Source of the DNA: Phytoactinopolyspora halophila
GTDB taxonomy: Bacteria; Actinomycetota; Actinomycetes; Jiangellales; Jiangellaceae
NCBI RefSeq assembly: GCF_003287285.1
Contig: NZ_QMIG01000002.1
Coordinates: forward strand, 248,001-312,000
Direction of reading: 5' to 3'
Length of the DNA stretch: 64,000 bases
Below are positions 38,062 through 61,583 of this stretch, piece after piece; position 1 is the first letter of the stretch; every line of letters starts with the position of its first letter. Under the pieces are notes generated by a model. It made no database searches. It was not told the DNA's origin and was given only the letters and a program-made list of their open reading frames with translations. A program made the translations under genes and the position numbers.

Positions 38062-38100
38062 CGTTGTGCCCTCGGCAGCCATTCCTCCCGGACGAAGACA

Positions 38101-38163
38101 GCCCGTGGGCCGCTTCCGTGCACGAGGCACGGCCGGGGCGGACTGACCCCGGAGCCCACGGGC
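38101..38163. ncRNA. Candidate structured RNA: perfect three-way junction
   Basis: The outer stem pairs GCCCGTGGGC (38101-38110) with its complement (38154-38163). Inside lie two perfect hairpins: CCGTGC-ACGAG-GCACGG (38116-38132) and CCGGGG with an 8-nt loop and CCCCGG (38133-38152). Only 5 and 1 bases are unpaired at the junction. The fold is equally good on both strands. No T tract follows on either side, so a simple terminator is not the best reading. It lies between convergent genes. On the minus strand it lies 76 bp downstream of a micro-ORF. Confidence 0.5.
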
Positions 38164-38238
38164 CGGGTGACTACTCCGTATTGCCAGCACACCTGCCGAC
38201 AGAACGAGGCCACCTAGGTCCTCGATTCGGGCACGCTG

Positions 38239-38277
38239 CTAGCGAGCAGCCACCTCACGTGTCCAAGAGCTATTCAT
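38239..38277 (-). CDS. 12-residue micro-ORF with very long Shine-Dalgarno match
   Basis: ATG to TAG encodes MNSSWTREVAAR. The bases at 38280-38296, read on the minus strand, are AAAGGAGGTGGTCCAGC, which pair with the 3' end of 16S rRNA at 16 of 17 positions (one G-for-A, itself able to wobble-pair). That match is far longer than any other ribosome site in the window. A 6-bp GCTGCT/AGCAGC hairpin overlaps the stop. It may encode a tiny peptide or act as a ribosome-binding regulatory element. A role as leader or downstream element of the thioesterase-like gene is possible. Confidence 0.45.
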   Translation of the reverse strand: MNSSWTREVAAR

Positions 38278-38359
38278 CTGCTGGACCACCTCCTTTCCCG
38301 TGTACTCGACACAGTAGACGCGACATATCCGGCGGGGCAATGGATTATCCGCACGGAGT

Positions 38360-52857: not shown

Positions 52858-55251
52858 TCACACGGTGACTCGGCGGGTCCGCGCATACAGGGCACCACCG
52901 ACGGCCAGCAATCCGAGTCCGGCCGCGAGGGTGAGCAGGTTACCCGCACCGGTGTCGGGCAAGTCGTCTTCGCCCTCCTCGTCCTCACCGTCCTCGGTGC
53001 CGTCGTCCTCATCATCACCGGAGTCGTCCACGTCGACCGTGAAGTTCACCGGTTCCGTGCTCGGCGATGTCGCGTCACCGATCGTCTGTGTCGCCGTGAC
53101 CGAGCACTCGCCGTTCGGCAGGCCCTCCTCCGGCGTGAACGACCATTCACCGTTCCCGTCGACGTCGGCATCACCCTCGACCGTGGTGCTGTCACCACAC
53201 TCGATCGTGACGTTCACCGTGGCGTCCGCCACGCCCGTACCGGTGAAGGTGGGAGTGGCGTTCGTCGCGGTGTCGCCCTCTTCGGGCGTGGTGATGGCCG
53301 GAGCATCCAGCGGCACGGTCACCGTCACCGAGTCCGTGTTCGGATCCTCCATATCGGCAACCGTCTGCTGAGCCGTGATCGTGGTGTCTCCGTACGGCAG
53401 CCCGTCTTCGATCACGGCGTCCCAACGACCTTCGTCGTCGGCACTCGCCTCGGCGACGACCTCGTCGTCGACACTCAGGGCGACGGAGGCCTCGGGCTCC
53501 GCGGTCCCCTCGACCGGGAGATCGCCCCGCTCGACCTCGGCACCGTCCTCCGGCGACGCGATGTCCACCGGCTCTGCGTCGAACGGTTCGGCCTCACCCG
53601 AGATGCTGTAGAGGCCGAGGCTGCCGTAGTCGGAGTAGCAGCAGCCGTTCTCTGGGGTGTTGTCCTGGGGGTCACCCTGGCCGCGGCCCTCGACTGCCAG
53701 ATAATACACACCGGCGTCGACCTCTTCGTCAACCGAGGCGTCCAAGCCGGCAGCCTCTCCGGTGCCGGGCACGGCCGACGTCTCCTGCTCTCCCTCGGCG
53801 ACAACGTCACCCTCGGCGTCGAGCAGCGTCAGCTTGAGGTCGAGGTTGGGACGGTTGCCACCCGGCTCGACGCTCGCGGTGATCGGTCCACCGTCCGTGG
53901 TGAAGGTGAACACGTCCACATCACCCGCGGTCCCGACCAGGCCGTCTGCTGCGAACTCCCCATCGGAGTTGTCGAGCGACGTGGCGTCGTCGCTCGAATC
54001 ACCGTGGGAATCCTGCACGTGATCGGTGCGGTCCGAGTAGTCCCAGCGGTCCGTCAGCTCCGGCCCGGGGGGATTACAGGTGTTGTCCTCGTTGGGTTCG
54101 AAGAACTCGTCCCCCGGTTGTGGGTTGTTCGGCTCTCCCGTGGTGCAGTACGGATCGGTCCAGCGGTTGCCGTTCTGGTCCAGCAGAATGAGCTGTTCCA
54201 TGACCGCATCGTCAGCGGTCATCGTGGCGACGTCATCCTGCTCGGGGTTCGTCGCGTCGGCGTATTCGCCGTTCGACCACGTGGCGAGCGGGACGCCAAA
54301 GGGAGCACCCATGAGCGGACCCCAGAGCGCATCCGGCGCTGGCTGCGTCTGGCCGTAGTAGTACTCCTCGTCGCCGATCCCGTGGTGCTCGAGGCCGAGC
54401 TCGTGGCCGAGCTCGTGCGAAGCAACCATTCCGATGGACTCGCTGTTGTGATTTAGCTTGTCGGCCCAGACCAATGCAGGGGTGCCGACCTCCATGCCGT
54501 AGAGTCCCAGCCACGCCCTTCCGCTAGCGCCGGTGTGGATTTCCGAAGGGAACTCTTCACTGTCCGGAGCGACCAACAGGCGCGCGCCATAGGAATCGTC
54601 GTCCGCAGACGTCTTGTTCAGGGCATCGTCGCCGGGATCGGAGATGGTGACGTTGATGTCGAAGGGCGCGTAATTCTGCGCGACCCGTTCCCAGACCTCA
54701 TGCTTGAAGTCGTCATCCACCTCGTATGGCGAGACCTCGATGGTGTCGACGTCGTATATACGGTTCCATTCCGTGTTTTCGATCGTGTCGCCGTCGAAGT
54801 CGATGTAGATCGTGTGCGAAGCATCGGGGCGCGAACCATCGATCGGGTTCCCCGGCACCTCCGCGTTCCCGATCTCAGGTTCGTGCACGTCTTCAGGCAC
54901 GTCCCAATCGTCGACGAACGAGACGAAGCCAGAGGGAGAGACAACGGCTTGCTCGTTCTTCAGGTAGGACTCCAGCCGTTCCGCCGTCATCCCCGCACGT
55001 TCGGCGACCCGAGTCAGATCGGACTCGTCCAGCTGGCTGAGTGCCTCGGGTCCGCTCGACAGCGGCTCGACCAAGTCTCCCGCGACCTCGAAGTCGCCTG
55101 ACCCCTCGGAGTCTTCTGATTCGTCTAAATCGATGTTTTCTGGTTTGATCTCGGCACCGGCAGCCGGCAGCGACGCGGCACCGAGCGCCAAAGCGCTGGC
55201 ACCGGTCACAGCCACGGCGGCTGCCAGCCGCCTTCGCTGCGTCACTTTCAC
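52858..55251 (-). CDS. Secreted, LPDTG-anchored metzincin metallopeptidase
   Basis: 797 residues. Signal peptide about 1-33; pro-region with a small helical domain (70-116); catalytic domain with HELGHELGLEHH at 279-290, the HExxHxxGxxH zinc site of metzincins (His279, Glu280, His283, His289). Behind it lie a PPC-like beta domain (VDVFTFTTDGGPITASVEPG), two Ig-like repeats and an acidic linker. The end is a cell-wall sorting signal: LPDTG at 764-768, a hydrophobic span and RTRR. GTG start with GGGAG 9 nt upstream. A class E sortase gene diverges 253 bp upstream and is the likely anchoring enzyme. Confidence 0.9.
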   Translation of the reverse strand: MKVTQRRRLAAAVAVTGASALALGAASLPAAGAEIKPENIDLDESEDSEGSGDFEVAGDLVEPLSSGPEALSQLDESDLTRVAERAGMTAERLESYLKNEQAVVSPSGFVSFVDDWDVPEDVHEPEIGNAEVPGNPIDGSRPDASHTIYIDFDGDTIENTEWNRIYDVDTIEVSPYEVDDDFKHEVWERVAQNYAPFDINVTISDPGDDALNKTSADDDSYGARLLVAPDSEEFPSEIHTGASGRAWLGLYGMEVGTPALVWADKLNHNSESIGMVASHELGHELGLEHHGIGDEEYYYGQTQPAPDALWGPLMGAPFGVPLATWSNGEYADATNPEQDDVATMTADDAVMEQLILLDQNGNRWTDPYCTTGEPNNPQPGDEFFEPNEDNTCNPPGPELTDRWDYSDRTDHVQDSHGDSSDDATSLDNSDGEFAADGLVGTAGDVDVFTFTTDGGPITASVEPGGNRPNLDLKLTLLDAEGDVVAEGEQETSAVPGTGEAAGLDASVDEEVDAGVYYLAVEGRGQGDPQDNTPENGCCYSDYGSLGLYSISGEAEPFDAEPVDIASPEDGAEVERGDLPVEGTAEPEASVALSVDDEVVAEASADDEGRWDAVIEDGLPYGDTTITAQQTVADMEDPNTDSVTVTVPLDAPAITTPEEGDTATNATPTFTGTGVADATVNVTIECGDSTTVEGDADVDGNGEWSFTPEEGLPNGECSVTATQTIGDATSPSTEPVNFTVDVDDSGDDEDDGTEDGEDEEGEDDLPDTGAGNLLTLAAGLGLLAVGGALYARTRRVTV

Positions 55252-55504
55252 AGTGTTGATCTCCCAAATTCGCTCATACCAGGGCATAGGTTAGAGATGG
55301 TGCTACTAACCACCAGGAGGACGCTAGCAGATATGTCGGACAAGTCCAGACGCGGGCCGCCACGTGATACGCGCCATTTGTGGGCATATGCCGCGAGTGG
55401 CACGCGTCATGTCGAGCAGCACCGGGTGTCACGTGCGATGAACGGCATCACATACCGGGCCGCACTGGTCGGCAGCGGGGCGTCCTAACAGTTAAGCTCT
55501 AACC

Positions 55505-56218
55505 ATGCATCGCAAGGCGCGGAGAGGTCGTCGCAGGGCGCCCAAGCGCAGTCCGGTCGCCGTGATCGCCGGGGTCATGGGTGAACTATTGCTGACTGCT
55601 GGCGCGATTGTCCTGCTCTTCGTTGTCTATACCCTCTGGGGTACCGGCCTGCAGACGGCGGCAGCACAAGATGATCTTCGAGAAGAATTCGACCTACAGA
55701 TCCAATCCGACGACGAGGACGAGTCCGAGGACGAGTCCGAAGAGCCCGGAGATCTCGAACTCGGCGACGCATACGGCATCCTCCGTATCCCCCGGTTCGG
55801 CGAGGACTGGGAATGGCTCGTCGTCGAAGGTGTCGAGGACGACGACCTCAGAGACGGCCCGGGGCGGTATCCGGACAACGCTCATGCTGGGGAACTCGGT
55901 AATTTCGCGATTGCCGGCCACCGTTCCGGCCACGGCGAGCCGTTCGCGCCGTTCCCCGAGCTTCACGAGGGCGACATCGTCGAGATCGAGACGCGAACCG
56001 GTATCTACCAATACGAGCTGGACAGCGCGCCGAACGGGGATCCCGACGGCAACCGGATCGAGATTTCGGACAGCTGGGTCGTCGACCCCGTTCCCGGCGA
56101 GCCCTCCAGCACCGAACCCGAAGAGGCGCGGCTGACGTTGACGACATGCTGGCCACGGTGGGGGTCGTCACACCGCATGTATGCGAGCGGCGTACTCGTC
56201 AGCGAAGAGGAGCGTTGA
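55505..56218 (+). CDS. srtE: Class E sortase
   Basis: 237-residue transpeptidase that links proteins with sorting signals to peptidoglycan. Basic N-terminus, one membrane span (about 17-45), then the catalytic beta-barrel with His139 (IAGHRSG), Cys215 (TLTTC) and Arg224 (SSHRMY). The TLTTCWPRW form and length fit class E of actinobacteria. This class usually prefers LAxTG, whereas the neighbouring substrate has LPDTG. ATG with no strong ribosome site. A 51-residue membrane protein gene follows 7 bp on. Confidence 0.92.
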   Translation: MHRKARRGRRRAPKRSPVAVIAGVMGELLLTAGAIVLLFVVYTLWGTGLQTAAAQDDLREEFDLQIQSDDEDESEDESEEPGDLELGDAYGILRIPRFGEDWEWLVVEGVEDDDLRDGPGRYPDNAHAGELGNFAIAGHRSGHGEPFAPFPELHEGDIVEIETRTGIYQYELDSAPNGDPDGNRIEISDSWVVDPVPGEPSSTEPEEARLTLTTCWPRWGSSHRMYASGVLVSEEER

Positions 56219-56397: not shown

Positions 56398-56685
56398 TCA
56401 GCAGCCGCCGGCCACGGCGGGGATCACCGACACCTTGGAGCCGGGAGGCGTGTGGGTCTGCAGGCCGGACGCGAAACGAACGTCATCGTCGTCGACGTAC
56501 ACGTTCACGAAACGCCGGATCTCACCCGTGTCGTCGAGAACCCGCGCGCCGATCCCCGGATACGACGCGTCCAGGGCCGTGAGGACGTCGGACAGCGTGG
56601 CATCGTCGGCCACGTCCACGCTCACGTCGGCCTCGCCCTTGGTGTAGGTGCGCAGGATCGTCGGGACTCGTACAGCAACACTCAT
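56398..56685 (-). CDS. ThiS/MoaD/CysO-like sulfur carrier ending Gly-Gly-Cys
   Basis: 95-residue beta-grasp carrier. SVAVRVPTILRTYTKGEADVSV, IRRFVNVYVDDDDVRF and VSVIPAVAGG closely match mycobacterial CysO. Carriers of this family end in Gly-Gly, the site of thiocarboxylate formation; here one further residue, Cys95, follows. It must be removed, for example by a Mec-type JAMM protease, before sulfur loading; none is in this window. The ATG overlaps the stop of the thrC-like gene by one base, so the two are translated together. With the SAM riboswitch upstream it most likely serves methionine synthesis. Confidence 0.88.
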   Translation of the reverse strand: MSVAVRVPTILRTYTKGEADVSVDVADDATLSDVLTALDASYPGIGARVLDDTGEIRRFVNVYVDDDDVRFASGLQTHTPPGSKVSVIPAVAGGC

Positions 56686-57968
56686 CAGTTTTCAGCCTCC
56701 GGGACGAGGGCGCGGAACGCCTCGGTGGTCGGTGCAATGGTTCCCGCCGGTCCGACGACCGGCGTGACGGCGTCGAGCGTCTTCAACCCTTCCCCGGTGT
56801 TGAAGATTACCGTCTCCGCATCCGGGTCGAGCTTGCCTTCGCGAAGTAACTTGGCAAGAACGGCTACCGTCACGCCGGCAGCCGTCTCACCGAAAATACC
56901 TTCCGTTCGAGCCAGCAGGCGGATTCCGTCGATGACGTCGTCGTCGGTGACATCCTCGACCGCGCCACCCGTGCGCCGGGTCACGTCCAGAACATACGGG
57001 CCGTCGGCCGGATTACCGATGGCCAGCGACTTCGCCACGGTATCCGGGCGTACCGGACGCACCACGTCATGTCCAGCTTTATAAGCGGCCGCGACCGGCG
57101 AGCACCCGCTCGCCTGCGCCCCGAAAACAGCCGGCCCCCCGCCGGCTACCAGGCCGAGTTCGGTCAGCTCACGAAATGCCTTGTCGACCTTGACCAGCTG
57201 TGCACCGCTCGCCACGGGGATGACCACCTGTTCGGGAAGCCGCCAGCCAAGCTGTTCGGCCGTCTCGAACCCCAGCGTCTTCGAGCCCTCGGCGTAGTAG
57301 GGGCGGACGTTCACGTTGACGAACGCCCAGTCTTCGTATTGCCCTGCCAGCTCCGAGGCGAGCCGGTTGACATCGTCGTAATTGCCATCGACGGCGACCA
57401 GCGTGGTGTCGTAGACGGCACTGGTGACGATCTTCTGTTGTTCGAGATTGCTCGGGATGAACACGAAACTGCGAATGCCAGCCCGGGCGGCTGCCGCAGC
57501 CACGGCGTTGGCGAGGTTTCCCGTGGACGGGCACGCCAGCACCGAGAATCCGAGCTCACGCGCGGCTGCGAGGGCGACCGCTACCACGCGGTCCTTGAAC
57601 GAATGGGTGGGGTTGGCGGCGTCGTTCTTGACCCACAACGCTTTCATTCCCAGCTCGCGGGCGAGGTTGTCCGCCTTCAGCAGTGGCGTGAACCCCGGCT
57701 CGGTGTTGGGAACTTCCGTGACGTTTCGCGGAACGGGCAGGAGATCCTTGTAGCGCCAGATCGATATCGGACCGGATTCAATCTTCTCCCGGGTGACGTC
57801 CCCGAAGTCGTACGCCACCTCCAACGGACCGAAGCACTCCAGGCACGCGTAGTACGGCCCGAGCTCGGTTGTAGCCGAACACTCACGACATGAGAGGTGG
57901 GTCGCCGGTCCGAGGTCGAGGGCGCTGGCCTCCGAACGCGTCGATGCCGGCGTGTCGGTGATGGTCAT
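56685..57968 (-). CDS. thrC: Threonine synthase-family PLP enzyme (possible homocysteine synthase)
   Basis: 427 residues. The N-terminus is a zinc ribbon (LSCRECSATTELGPYYACLECFGPLE) as in some threonine synthases; PLP binding is shown by NPTHSFKDRVV (Lys) and the ACPSTGNLANAVAAAAA phosphate loop. By family it converts O-phosphohomoserine to threonine. However, it is preceded by a SAM riboswitch and coupled to a sulfur carrier, and hom and thrB are not near. A role as O-phosphohomoserine-dependent homocysteine synthase, as reported for a Streptomyces thrC-like enzyme (from memory, MetM with carrier MetO), fits better. ATG with GGAGGAG upstream; an open extension upstream lies on the riboswitch and is not coding. 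Confidence 0.88.
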   Translation of the reverse strand: MTITDTPASTRSEASALDLGPATHLSCRECSATTELGPYYACLECFGPLEVAYDFGDVTREKIESGPISIWRYKDLLPVPRNVTEVPNTEPGFTPLLKADNLARELGMKALWVKNDAANPTHSFKDRVVAVALAAARELGFSVLACPSTGNLANAVAAAAARAGIRSFVFIPSNLEQQKIVTSAVYDTTLVAVDGNYDDVNRLASELAGQYEDWAFVNVNVRPYYAEGSKTLGFETAEQLGWRLPEQVVIPVASGAQLVKVDKAFRELTELGLVAGGGPAVFGAQASGCSPVAAAYKAGHDVVRPVRPDTVAKSLAIGNPADGPYVLDVTRRTGGAVEDVTDDDVIDGIRLLARTEGIFGETAAGVTVAVLAKLLREGKLDPDAETVIFNTGEGLKTLDAVTPVVGPAGTIAPTTEAFRALVPEAEN

Positions 57969-57984
57969 AAACGAAAACTCCTCC

Positions 57985-58091
57985 CTCATCTGTCCCGCGT
58001 GGCCAGCGGGCCGGACTTGGCACCACTCCCGCGCCAATGCGGGCGGTTGCCGGGGCTTCACCGGGCCGGTCCCTCTGCCCCTCTGGATGAG
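57985..58091 (-). promoter_or_regulatory. SAM riboswitch (S-box/SAM-I clan)
   Basis: 107 nt with the conserved SAM-I core: CTCATC and GATGAG close helix P1; CAGAGGGGCAGAGGGACC, GAAGCCCCGGCAACC and GGTGCCAAGTCC match the SAM-I/IV signature in order. The 3' strand of P1 (GATGAG) runs straight into GGAGGAG, the ribosome site of the thrC-like gene, so control of translation is likely: SAM binding would hide the site. I see no separate terminator hairpin. SAM-IV is the alternative subtype. Confidence 0.88.
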
Positions 58092-58246
58092 TACGTCCGC
58101 ATACATTACGACGCCCACCCGCGACCTCGCGCCTCTCGTCCAGATCGTAAGACAAAATCGTCTCACTTCGTAGACAGATGGGCCCAATGCAGGAGAAAAG
58201 CCCTCTCGCCCTACCCGGTCGCCGAGGTCGCCCCGGAGCACGGACG

Positions 58247-59053
58247 TCACAGCAGGAGCTGGCGCAGCGCCTCCAGCACCCCTTCCGGACCCCGGACCAC
58301 CAAGTCAGCACGATCCCGCAGTTCCGGCACCACGGCGTCCGCTTCGCTACAGATCACCATGCCGGTCACGCCCTCCCGCCGAAGAGCACTCACGGCCTCG
58401 ACAGCAGGGAGATCTCCGATGTCGTCGCCGGCATAGACAACGGCCGAGGGCGACATCTCCGTCACCAGCTCACGCAACGTCGCCCCCTTGTCGACACCGG
58501 CTGGACGCAACTCGAAGACCAACCGGCCGGGCGTGAGCTCCAATCCCGTTTCTCGTGCGATCTCCGTGACATACGGCTCGATCGCCACCAGTGCCGCTGG
58601 TGGATCGGCCGCCCGGCGCGTGTGCACGGCTACTGAATGTCCCTTGTCCTCGATGCTCGCCCCGGACCATCGATCGGCTCGCTCGGGCCGCAGCAAGTCT
58701 TCGACCCGCGCCCGTGCCTCGGCGACGGCCGCCGCATGCGGCGGGCTCTCGAGCTCGCCGGAGGACCATCGTTCCAAACCATAGTGGCCGCACACGATCA
58801 GGCCAGGGACGGAAGAAAACCCGCCCAGCCGCACCGCCTCGGCGGCGGGTCGGCCGGTGATGATCGCCGTTCTCGCTACCCGGTTCGAGATGGCAGTCAA
58901 GACATCAGCGGCTCCCGGAGCCGCGCGAGCATCTTCCGGGCGCTCGACTATCGGCGCCAGCGTCCCGTCGAAATCGAGCGCGACGAGCGTCTCGGACAAG
59001 ACGGGTGCGAGCATGGCAGCGAGCTCTGCGCGCCGGTCGCGGCCCGCGGTCAC
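58247..59053 (-). CDS. otsB: Trehalose-6-phosphate phosphatase
   Basis: 268-residue HAD phosphatase. Motif I ALDFDGTLAPI, IITGRP and the C-terminal VYAGDDIGD are intact; GHYGLERWS and EDKGHSVAVHTRR are typical of OtsB. It completes trehalose synthesis from the product of OtsA, encoded 1.1 kb away on the other strand. GTG start overlaps the stop of the upstream LytR_C gene by four bases. Confidence 0.95.
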   Translation of the reverse strand: MTAGRDRRAELAAMLAPVLSETLVALDFDGTLAPIVERPEDARAAPGAADVLTAISNRVARTAIITGRPAAEAVRLGGFSSVPGLIVCGHYGLERWSSGELESPPHAAAVAEARARVEDLLRPERADRWSGASIEDKGHSVAVHTRRAADPPAALVAIEPYVTEIARETGLELTPGRLVFELRPAGVDKGATLRELVTEMSPSAVVYAGDDIGDLPAVEAVSALRREGVTGMVICSEADAVVPELRDRADLVVRGPEGVLEALRQLLL

Positions 59054-59697
59054 CCTCCGCCCTCGTCGTCCTCGTCATCGACGACCTCGAGGTAGTCGTC
59101 CACGAGGATCACGACCAGGCGATCCGGATTGACTCCCTCGATCGTGGGCTGCACCCGCCCGATCTCGGGAAACTGCTCCGAGAGCGCCTGGGCGTACTCC
59201 TCGTACCCGGGTGGGAAGAAGACGGTCGTCTCCGGGATCTCGCCGGAGTAGTACCCGGTGGCGGCGACCTCCCAGCCACCGTCCTCCAGACGATCCTGGG
59301 CCACGAGCTCCAACCCGTCGATCGTCGTCTGGTTCGCGATGCCCACGGGGGAGCGTAGCTCCGGTGGAGCCGTCACACCCTCGTCTTCGTCGGGCTCGTC
59401 GGGCTCATCCGGGTTCTCCGGCTCGTCGGTTTCTTCCGCATCCTCGCCAGAAGACTCCTCGTCATCGGGCTCGTCGGTGGCGTCATCGGGCGACTCGGTG
59501 GATTCCGTGTCCTCCGTCCCCGCATCGCCGTCCGTCCCGTCGTCGGTGCCCGCGTCGTCGCCGGCCGCCAGGTCATCCGTTTGGTCGCCGTCCGTGTCAT
59601 CCCCGAAGAGGAAAAGTAGCGCGACCACGACACCCACAGTGCCGAGCAGCGCTACGAGCGACGGCCACGCCCGATCAAGTCGTTCGCGCATCGTCAC
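59050..59697 (-). CDS. LytR C-terminal-domain membrane protein
   Basis: 215 residues. One membrane span (SLVALLGTVGVVVALLFLF), an extremely acidic Asp/Glu/Thr linker of about 75 residues, then a LytR_C domain (SPVGIANQTTIDGLELVAQDRLEDGGW). LytR_C domains usually follow LCP domains in cell-wall ligases; here the domain stands alone. GTG, with ATG two codons later. It is coupled to otsB. Confidence 0.88.
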   Translation of the reverse strand: MTMRERLDRAWPSLVALLGTVGVVVALLFLFGDDTDGDQTDDLAAGDDAGTDDGTDGDAGTEDTESTESPDDATDEPDDEESSGEDAEETDEPENPDEPDEPDEDEGVTAPPELRSPVGIANQTTIDGLELVAQDRLEDGGWEVAATGYYSGEIPETTVFFPPGYEEYAQALSEQFPEIGRVQPTIEGVNPDRLVVILVDDYLEVVDDEDDEGGG

Positions 59698-59764
59698 GGA
59701 ACCGTAGATTACGCCACGAGCCGAGCCGCGGGCACGAAGAACGATGTGGACGGCACGTCAACGG

Positions 59765-60067
59765 TCAGGCCTCCGGTGTGGCGCGCCGGGCGGTACGGGC
59801 GCGCGTACGCGACGAACGCAACCGCCGTAACCGTTTCACCAGCATGGGATCTTCGGCCATGGCCTCCGGCCGATCGATCAAGGCGTTGAGCACCTGGTAA
59901 TAGCGGGTAGAGCTCATATCGAACTGTTCACGGATCACCTGTTCCTTCGAGCCGGCGTACTTCCACCACTGCCGCTCGAATCTCAAGATCGCTCGTTCCT
60001 GCTCGTCCAGCGCTCCCGACGGGGCATCCGCTACAGGCATTTCGGCAACCGTGTCCATATCGGCCAT
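59765..60067 (-). CDS. DUF3263 family protein
   Basis: 100 residues. LDEQERAILRFERQWWKYAGSKEQVIREQFDMSSTRYYQVLNALID is the conserved DUF3263 core, a helix-turn-helix related to sigma factor region 4, with a basic tail. It is an actinobacterial protein of unknown function, likely DNA binding. ATG at MADMDTV; a second ATG three codons on. It is divergent from otsA. Confidence 0.9.
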   Translation of the reverse strand: MADMDTVAEMPVADAPSGALDEQERAILRFERQWWKYAGSKEQVIREQFDMSSTRYYQVLNALIDRPEAMAEDPMLVKRLRRLRSSRTRARTARRATPEA

Positions 60068-60182
60068 AGTAAACACACTGGCAAAACCACACGCGCTTCG
60101 ACACAGTACGCCAGGTTTGCCCCTTCCCTCGTGAGGGTGTGGTGACGAAGGCAGGTACCGTAGAAGCGGACGAGGAGGCCAT

Positions 60183-61583
60183 GTGGAAAGCACTGGAAAG
60201 AGCAGCTTCGTCGTTGTCGCCAACCGGCTCCCGGTAGACCGGGTGCTTGCCGCCGACGGCACCCCAACGTGGCGCCGCAGCCCGGGCGGCCTGGTCAGCG
60301 CCCTGGCTCCGGTGATGCGCAAGTATCACGGTGCCTGGGTCGGATGGCCGGGCTCGTCCGATGACGCACCGGGCTCATTCTCCAGCGAGGACATGGATCT
60401 GGTCGCCGTCTCGCTGTCGGCCGAAGAAGTGGCCATGTATTACGAGGGGTTCTCCAACGCGACCCTGTGGCCGCTGTATCACGACGTCATCGTCGCTCCC
60501 GAATATCACCGCGAATGGTGGGACGCGTACCGCCGGGTCAACGAGCGGTTCGCGCGCAAGGCGGCGGACGTCGCCGAGCACGACGCCATCGTCTTCGTGC
60601 AGGATTACCAGCTCCAGCTGGTTCCGAACATGCTGCGCCAGCTTCGCCCCGACCTGAAGATCGGATTCTTCCTGCACATCCCGTTCCCTCCCGCCGAACT
60701 CTTCGCCCAGCTACCGTGGCGCCGGCAGATCCTCGAAGGCTTGCTGGGCGCCGATCTCATCGGGTTCCAGCGCGAAGGCGCCGCCCATAACTTCGCGGCT
60801 CTGGCCGATCGATACACCGAGGCAACCGCAGAAGACCATCGGATCCACACCGCCGACGGCCGCAGCGTGCGTGTCCAGCAGTTCCCCATTTCCATCGACG
60901 TCGCCGAGATCACCGATCTGGTCTCCGAACCCGACGTCGTCATGCGTACCGCACATATTCGCGAAGAGATCGGCTCTCCAGAGCACATGTTGCTGGGAGT
61001 CGATCGCCTGGACTACACCAAGGGCATCGGCCACCGGCTCAAGGCCTTCGATGAGCTGCTCGCCGGTAAGGAGATCACTCCCGACGACGCCGTTCTCGTC
61101 CAGGTCGCCACGCCCAGCCGCGAGCGGGTCGAGGCCTACCAGACACTCCGCGACGAGATCGAGCTCCAGGTCGGGAGGTTGAACGGCGAGTACGGACGTA
61201 TCGGCCAGCCGGCGGTGCATTACCTGCACTCCTCCTACGAACGCCCGGAGTTGGTCTCGCTGTTGCGAGCCGCCGATGTCATGGTCGTTACACCACTACG
61301 CGACGGTATGAACCTCGTCGCCAAGGAATACGTGGCCGCCCGCACGGACCTGCGTGGAGCGCTGGTGCTCTCCGAGTTCGCCGGGGCCGCTGACGAGCTC
61401 GGTGACGGCGCGTTCCTGGTCAACCCGCACGACATCGACGGACTCAAGCGAACCCTTCTCGCCGCAATGCGTATTGACGACGCCGAGGCCGAGCAACGGA
61501 TGCGGGCGCTGCGCGAGCACGTCCTCCACTACGACGTCACACGCTGGGCAGAGGACTTCGTGGCAACGCTGCGCGCTACGTAA
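60183..61583 (+). CDS. otsA: Trehalose-6-phosphate synthase
   Basis: 466-residue GT20 glycosyltransferase joining UDP- or GDP-glucose to glucose-6-phosphate. [43 protein letters not shown] and the C-terminal [10 protein letters not shown] are all present. GTG start after a GAGGAGGCC ribosome site. With otsB it forms the OtsAB pathway for this protective sugar, which fits a salt- or dryness-stressed actinobacterium. Confidence 0.96.

What the first reader, a model, noticed from the sequence alone, without database searches (positions are those of the whole stretch)
56398..58091. SAM riboswitch-controlled thrC-like enzyme coupled to a CysO-like carrier with a Gly-Gly-Cys end
Seen: a full SAM-I-type riboswitch, then a threonine synthase-family gene, then a one-base overlap with a ThiS/MoaD-fold carrier. 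Established: SAM riboswitches control methionine and SAM genes, not threonine genes. Inference: the operon makes homocysteine from O-phosphohomoserine using the carrier's thiocarboxylate as sulfur donor. The extra C-terminal Cys must be trimmed first and may act as a safety cap.
Basis: partly seen in the sequence, partly recalled or inferred. Interest (0 to 1): 0.75.

Follow-up and report, generated by a model that had tools for sequence, protein, structure and literature searches.

The report
MetM–MetO methionine operon under SAM riboswitch
This is an actinobacterial copy of a recently described methionine route, in which a threonine-synthase look-alike takes sulfur from a small carrier protein to make homocysteine and an RNA switch that senses SAM turns it down; the odd extra cysteine at the carrier's tip is probably an incidental tail that an existing protease trims off.

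Summary
Minus strand: a complete SAM-I aptamer (58093–57983, 86 bits), a PLP enzyme of the threonine-synthase family (57968–56685), then with a one-base overlap a ThiS-fold carrier (56685–56398) ending Ala-Val-Ala-Gly-Gly-Cys. The arrangement is not unique: all 80 fetched relatives carry a SAM-I aptamer upstream, and 63 carry the carrier downstream. It matches MetM–MetO, a published SAM-riboswitched homocysteine synthase/sulfur-carrier pair of Streptomyces (Hasebe et al. 2024, known to me only through PMC12172450). The genome supports that role: a separate hom–thrC–thrB operon, MoeZ, a CysM–CysO–Mec cluster, no metA and no clear metX. The 'safety cap' idea is not supported. In the window's family all other carriers seen end in plain Gly-Gly. 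The Cys is always GGC-TGC-stop, as a CTG duplication in GGCTGA would give; it is scattered on the tree, and half of the CysO proteins carry other tails. Gly-Gly-Cys has the same chemistry as the CysO-cysteine adduct that Mec is known to cut, so trimming needs no new protease. Verdict: a new member of a known kind, usually mislabelled threonine synthase. Enzyme activity was not tested here.

The parts
57983..58093 (-). SAM-I (S-box) riboswitch aptamer; the 3' strand of P1 abuts the purine-rich ribosome-binding site
   Evidence: RF00162 86.2 bits; 80/80 relatives also have it
57969..57982 (-). 14-nt gap between aptamer and ATG, holding the end of the Shine-Dalgarno-like purine stretch; too short for a terminator, so control of translation is inferred
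   Evidence: sequence and alignment
56685..57968 (-). metM: threonine-synthase-family PLP enzyme, 427 aa, with N-terminal CxxC...CxxC and SFKDR lysine; predicted O-phosphohomoserine-dependent homocysteine synthase
   Evidence: TIGR00260 and PF00291 matches; clade-specific residues against canonical ThrC
56398..56685 (-). metO: ThiS/CysO-fold sulfur carrier, 95 aa, ends AVAGG-Cys
   Evidence: PF02597, CysO 3dwg, C-terminal codons GGC GGC TGC TGA

Best explanation
The locus is a metM–metO operon. When SAM is low the SAM-I riboswitch lets the ribosome reach the metM start. MoeZ (adenylation plus rhodanese) puts sulfur on the C-terminal Gly of MetO as a thiocarboxylate. MetM takes O-phosphohomoserine from the threonine branch, eliminates phosphate on PLP, and adds the carrier's sulfur at C-gamma. 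Hydrolysis, probably by the Mec-type JAB protease, releases homocysteine, which becomes methionine and SAM. The extra C-terminal Cys of this MetO is most likely an incidental one-residue tail, removed by the same protease because Gly-Gly-Cys equals the CysO-cysteine adduct that Mec normally cuts. Shown here: the architecture, its conservation, and the presence of each partner gene. Inferred: substrate, chemistry, level of riboswitch control, trimming by Mec. The MetM activity was shown by others for Streptomyces.
For: SAM-I upstream in 80/80 relatives and in 13/13 further loci. Carrier with AVAGG-type end downstream in 63/80. Separate hom–thrC–thrB in the genome, with one canonical ThrC in each of 32 genomes searched. 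The MetM group differs from ThrC at invariant positions, including those aligned with ThrC S178, N180, R183 and N211. MoeZ-type ThiF-rhodanese present. Mec in 32/32 genomes. No metA; only a distant metX-like gene at 148 bits, against 355–441 bits for strong metX hits, which 21 of 32 genomes lack. Published MetM/MetO with upstream SAM riboswitch (PMC12172450).
Against: No direct sequence comparison with S. albulus MetM/MetO was possible, and the primary paper (10.1128/aem.01247-24) is not held. PMC12172450 reports threonine synthase and threonine deaminase activity for a Microcystis homologue, so homology alone does not fix the activity. The genome has a cystathionine gamma-synthase-like gene, so another route could exist if the distant MetX-like protein works as MetX. 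12 Pseudonocardiales MetM loci have no adjacent carrier.
Confidence: 0.9

Rival explanations
1. The enzyme is an ordinary second threonine synthase that happens to lie beside a CysO paralogue; the riboswitch frees O-phosphohomoserine or saves it by shutting the enzyme down when SAM is high.
For: It passes the TIGR00260 threonine synthase cut-off (267 against 167 bits), and a Microcystis homologue makes threonine in vitro (PMC12172450).
Against: A canonical ThrC already sits in hom–thrC–thrB. Residues at the ThrC substrate/phosphate region are replaced in all MetM. Co-conservation with a carrier and a SAM switch has no reason in threonine synthesis.
Confidence: 0.06
2. The Gly-Gly-Cys end is a selected cap that keeps MetO inactive until a protease removes it.
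For: GGC ends recur in several lineages (10 of 64 carriers, at least 8 changes on the MetM tree), and Mec is always present.
Against: 50 of 64 carriers end in plain GG; all other MetO seen in the window's family end in GG. Other tails (AR, SS, SR, A) also occur. All ten cases are GGC-TGC-stop, as expected from a CTG duplication in GGCTGA. CysO shows equally variable tails.
Confidence: 0.07
3. The carrier with its Cys is never trimmed and works through the Cys thiol (persulfide or thiol carrier) instead of a thiocarboxylate.
For: Only that the gene encodes a terminal Cys.
Against: The Cys is absent from nearly all relatives with the same operon, while the GG is present in all 64 carriers examined.
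Confidence: 0.02

Closest known systems
MetM–MetO of Streptomyces albulus (Hasebe et al. 2024, 10.1128/aem.01247-24; described in PMC12172450)
   Same: ThrC-family enzyme beside a sulfur carrier, upstream SAM riboswitch, homocysteine synthase role using O-phosphohomoserine
   Different: The carrier here ends Gly-Gly-Cys; direct sequence identity to the S. albulus proteins was not measured
CysM–CysO–Mec cysteine pathway of Mycobacterium tuberculosis
   Same: CysO-like carrier (best solved relative 3dwg), PLP enzyme acting on an O-phospho amino acid, MoeZ and Mec
   Different: The enzyme is ThrC-like, not CysM-like; this genome has its own separate CysM–CysO–Mec cluster
HcyS–HcyD–MetY of Wolinella succinogenes (from general knowledge)
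   Same: Protein-thiocarboxylate homocysteine synthesis, with a carrier that needs C-terminal trimming
   Different: MetY is a Cys/Met-metabolism PLP enzyme (PF01053) that uses O-acetylhomoserine; here the enzyme is PF00291
Canonical threonine synthase ThrC (hom–thrC–thrB)
   Same: Fold, PLP lysine motif SFKDR, substrate O-phosphohomoserine (predicted)
   Different: N-terminal CxxC pair, remodelled substrate-site residues, SAM-I control, carrier partner

Membership tests
MetM–MetO | ThrC-family enzyme distinct from the genome's canonical ThrC | tested here: met
   37% identity to the hom-operon ThrC; many group-specific invariant residues
MetM–MetO | sulfur carrier gene directly downstream | tested here: met
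   one-base overlap; PF02597 and CysO match
MetM–MetO | SAM riboswitch upstream | tested here: met
   RF00162 86.2 bits
MetM–MetO | sequence identity to the characterised S. albulus proteins | not tested
   record and primary paper not held
MetM–MetO | O-phosphohomoserine plus carrier thiocarboxylate gives homocysteine | not testable with these tools
   needs an enzyme assay
canonical ThrC | gene in hom–thrC–thrB | tested here: not met
   another gene holds that place
canonical ThrC | TIGR00260 score over cut-off | tested here: met
   267 against 167 bits; the canonical gene scores 287, so the model does not separate the two
canonical ThrC | conserved NSVNPxR...GQK substrate-site motif | tested here: not met
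   NVNVRP(Y/F)Y...EGSK in 81/81
CysM–CysO | CysM-type enzyme with Mec in one cluster | tested here: not met
   that cluster is elsewhere, on contig C12
HcyS–MetY | PF01053 enzyme next to the carrier | tested here: not met
   the enzyme is PF00291 only
SAM-I riboswitch RF00162 | covariance-model match over gathering score, full length | tested here: met
   86.2 against 44.4, model 1–108

The most novel reading that the evidence does not exclude
The genetically encoded Gly-Gly-Cys makes MetO a built-in mimic of the CysO-cysteine adduct, so methionine-carrier maturation competes for Mec with cysteine release and couples the two sulfur pathways in the few lineages that carry it.
Probability: 0.06. 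Interest if true: 0.5.

Novelty: new member of a known kind. Interest (0 to 1): 0.22.

Why it matters
About 70% of sampled genomes of the class encode this enzyme (106 of 148), and the NCBIfam models scanned label it threonine synthase and its carrier a small archaeal modifier. The proper reading explains how many actinomycetes without metX may make methionine. The variable tails after Gly-Gly suggest that carrier maturation by a JAB protease is general in this group.

Tried and rejected
Primary paper on MetM: not held; the account rests on PMC12172450. Literature searches for threonine synthase plus thiocarboxylate found nothing else of use. Plain minimum-energy folding of the leader gave a non-S-box fold no more stable than shuffles (z 0.31); the covariance model is the relevant test. 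A search for Streptomyces relatives among plasmid records gave only Nonomuraea gerenzanensis, 65%. The MetX-like gene on C4 was considered as metX and judged a distant paralogue (148 bits). Safety cap: considered and set aside on the tail survey.

Full report
1. Observation. On the minus strand lie, in order, a complete SAM-I aptamer (58093–57983; RF00162, 86.2 bits against a gathering score of 44.4), an ATG 14 nt later that opens a 427-aa threonine-synthase-family gene (57968–56685), and a 95-aa ThiS-fold gene whose ATG shares one base with the preceding stop (56685–56398). The carrier's nearest solved relative is M. tuberculosis CysO, 3dwg, and its last codons are GGC GGC TGC TGA. This is the only RF00162 match in the genome.

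2. Conservation. A search of genome contigs returned 80 relatives of the enzyme. All 80 have a SAM-I aptamer upstream (16, 16, 18, 17, 13). 63 of 80 have the carrier found by tblastn in the locus, all on the same strand as the enzyme. Most of the rest are Pseudonocardiales (12 loci). In a draw of 148 genomes of the class, 106 encode the enzyme at E <= 1e-100; 13 of 13 further loci tested have the aptamer. The system is common in Actinomycetes.

3. What it is. A paper in the library (PMC12172450) describes MetM of Streptomyces albulus, 'a novel homocysteine synthase', with an upstream SAM riboswitch and a sulfur-carrier gene metO. It cites Hasebe et al. [quoted passage not shown] That paper is not held, so its details are taken second-hand; from memory, it showed MetO thiocarboxylate as the sulfur donor. 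The window operon has the same three parts in the same order. I did not compare sequences with S. albulus directly.

4. Genome context. The genome has a canonical hom–thrC–thrB operon on contig C74, and each of 32 genomes searched has one strong ThrC relative of that gene. It has CysM, CysO and a JAB protease together on contig C12, the latter being the only PF14464 match, and a MoeZ-like ThiF-rhodanese protein. PF01053 enzymes over the cut-off with a full-length match are two: a cystathionine gamma-synthase-like and a cystathionine gamma-lyase-like protein. There is no metA. The best metX match is 148 bits, while strong metX in relatives scores 355–441 bits; 21 of 32 genomes lack a strong one. 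MetM–MetO is therefore the most evident entry to homocysteine here. A cystathionine gamma-synthase route would need a working acyltransferase that was not found.

5. Enzyme anatomy. All 81 enzymes have the N-terminal CxxC...CxxC pair and SFKDR. Against 30 canonical ThrC from the same genomes, positions aligned with ThrC S178, N180, R183 and N211 are changed throughout: NSVNPxR...GQK becomes NVNVRP(Y/F)Y...EGSK, and N211 becomes Ser. From memory, residues of this region bind the phosphate in Thermus ThrC, where the released phosphate assists water addition at C-beta. Loss of that site fits replacement at C-gamma rather than threonine formation. This is inference.

6. Riboswitch. The gap from aptamer to ATG is 14 nt and the 3' strand of P1 runs into the purine-rich ribosome-binding stretch. 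There is no room for a terminator, so control of translation is inferred. Relatives whose match reaches the first residue show similar gaps, about 11–13 nt for L026 and L066.

7. The extra Cys. Of 64 carriers, 50 end in plain GG, 10 in GGC, 2 in GGAR, 1 in GGSS and 1 in GGSR. In the window's family, all others seen (Jiangellaceae loci L023–L026 and L028, and ten same-family genomes, L205–L214; the two sets may overlap in species) end in GG. Every GGC case is GGC TGC followed by a stop (nine TGA, one TAG), which is what duplicating CTG in GGCTGA yields. Parsimony on the MetM tree needs 8 changes. CysO from the same genomes also has tails after GG in 15 of 30 cases (S, SSR, APAAR, AVDSL and others), including Gly-Gly-Ser in this genome. 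All 32 genomes have the JAB protease. A carrier ending Gly-Gly-Cys is chemically the CysO-cysteine adduct that Mec is known to hydrolyse (established for M. tuberculosis; from knowledge). The simplest account is an incidental tail tolerated because Mec removes it. A selected cap is not excluded but has no positive support.

8. Verdict. The main interpretation is right in outline and already published for Streptomyces. The cap idea is not supported. The locus is a new member of a known kind.

Noticed in passing
window 56398-57968: The NCBIfam hits that would name these genes are misleading: the MetM-like enzyme passes the threonine synthase model TIGR00260 and the carrier passes the archaeal SAMP1 model NF041918.
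   Followed up: partly
window 38093-38303 (-): A strong match to the actinobacterial sRNA family Ms_IGR-5 (RF02471, 101 bits).
   Followed up: no
window 52858-56218: A secreted protein with a HELGHELGLEHH zinc-protease motif and an LPDTG anchor (52858-55287, -) lies divergent from a small sortase-like gene (55505-56218, +); read from sequence only.
   Followed up: no
window 58247-61583: Genes that look like trehalose-phosphatase (58247-59053, -) and trehalose-6-phosphate synthase (60183-61583, +) lie close together; read from sequence only.
   Followed up: no
L066, L070, L073, L075, L077, L078, L081, L082, L084, L085, L086, L092: Pseudonocardiales-type MetM keep the SAM-I aptamer but have no carrier gene nearby; the three genomes tested have a strong metX. 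Some have other carriers elsewhere (L195, L196).
   Followed up: partly
L104:5386-5661 and Mec loci L117-L145: CysO next to Mec carries variable tails after Gly-Gly in about half of the genomes (S, SSR, APAAR, AVDSL, RR and others), which suggests that carrier trimming is general.
   Followed up: partly
L058: A MAG labelled Spirochaetaceae carries an actinobacterial-type MetM with SAM-I; more likely misbinned or transferred than native.
   Followed up: no
L146:3707-4747 (-): A distant MetX-like alpha/beta hydrolase near a sugar-transporter-like gene; whether it acylates homoserine is unknown.
   Followed up: partly
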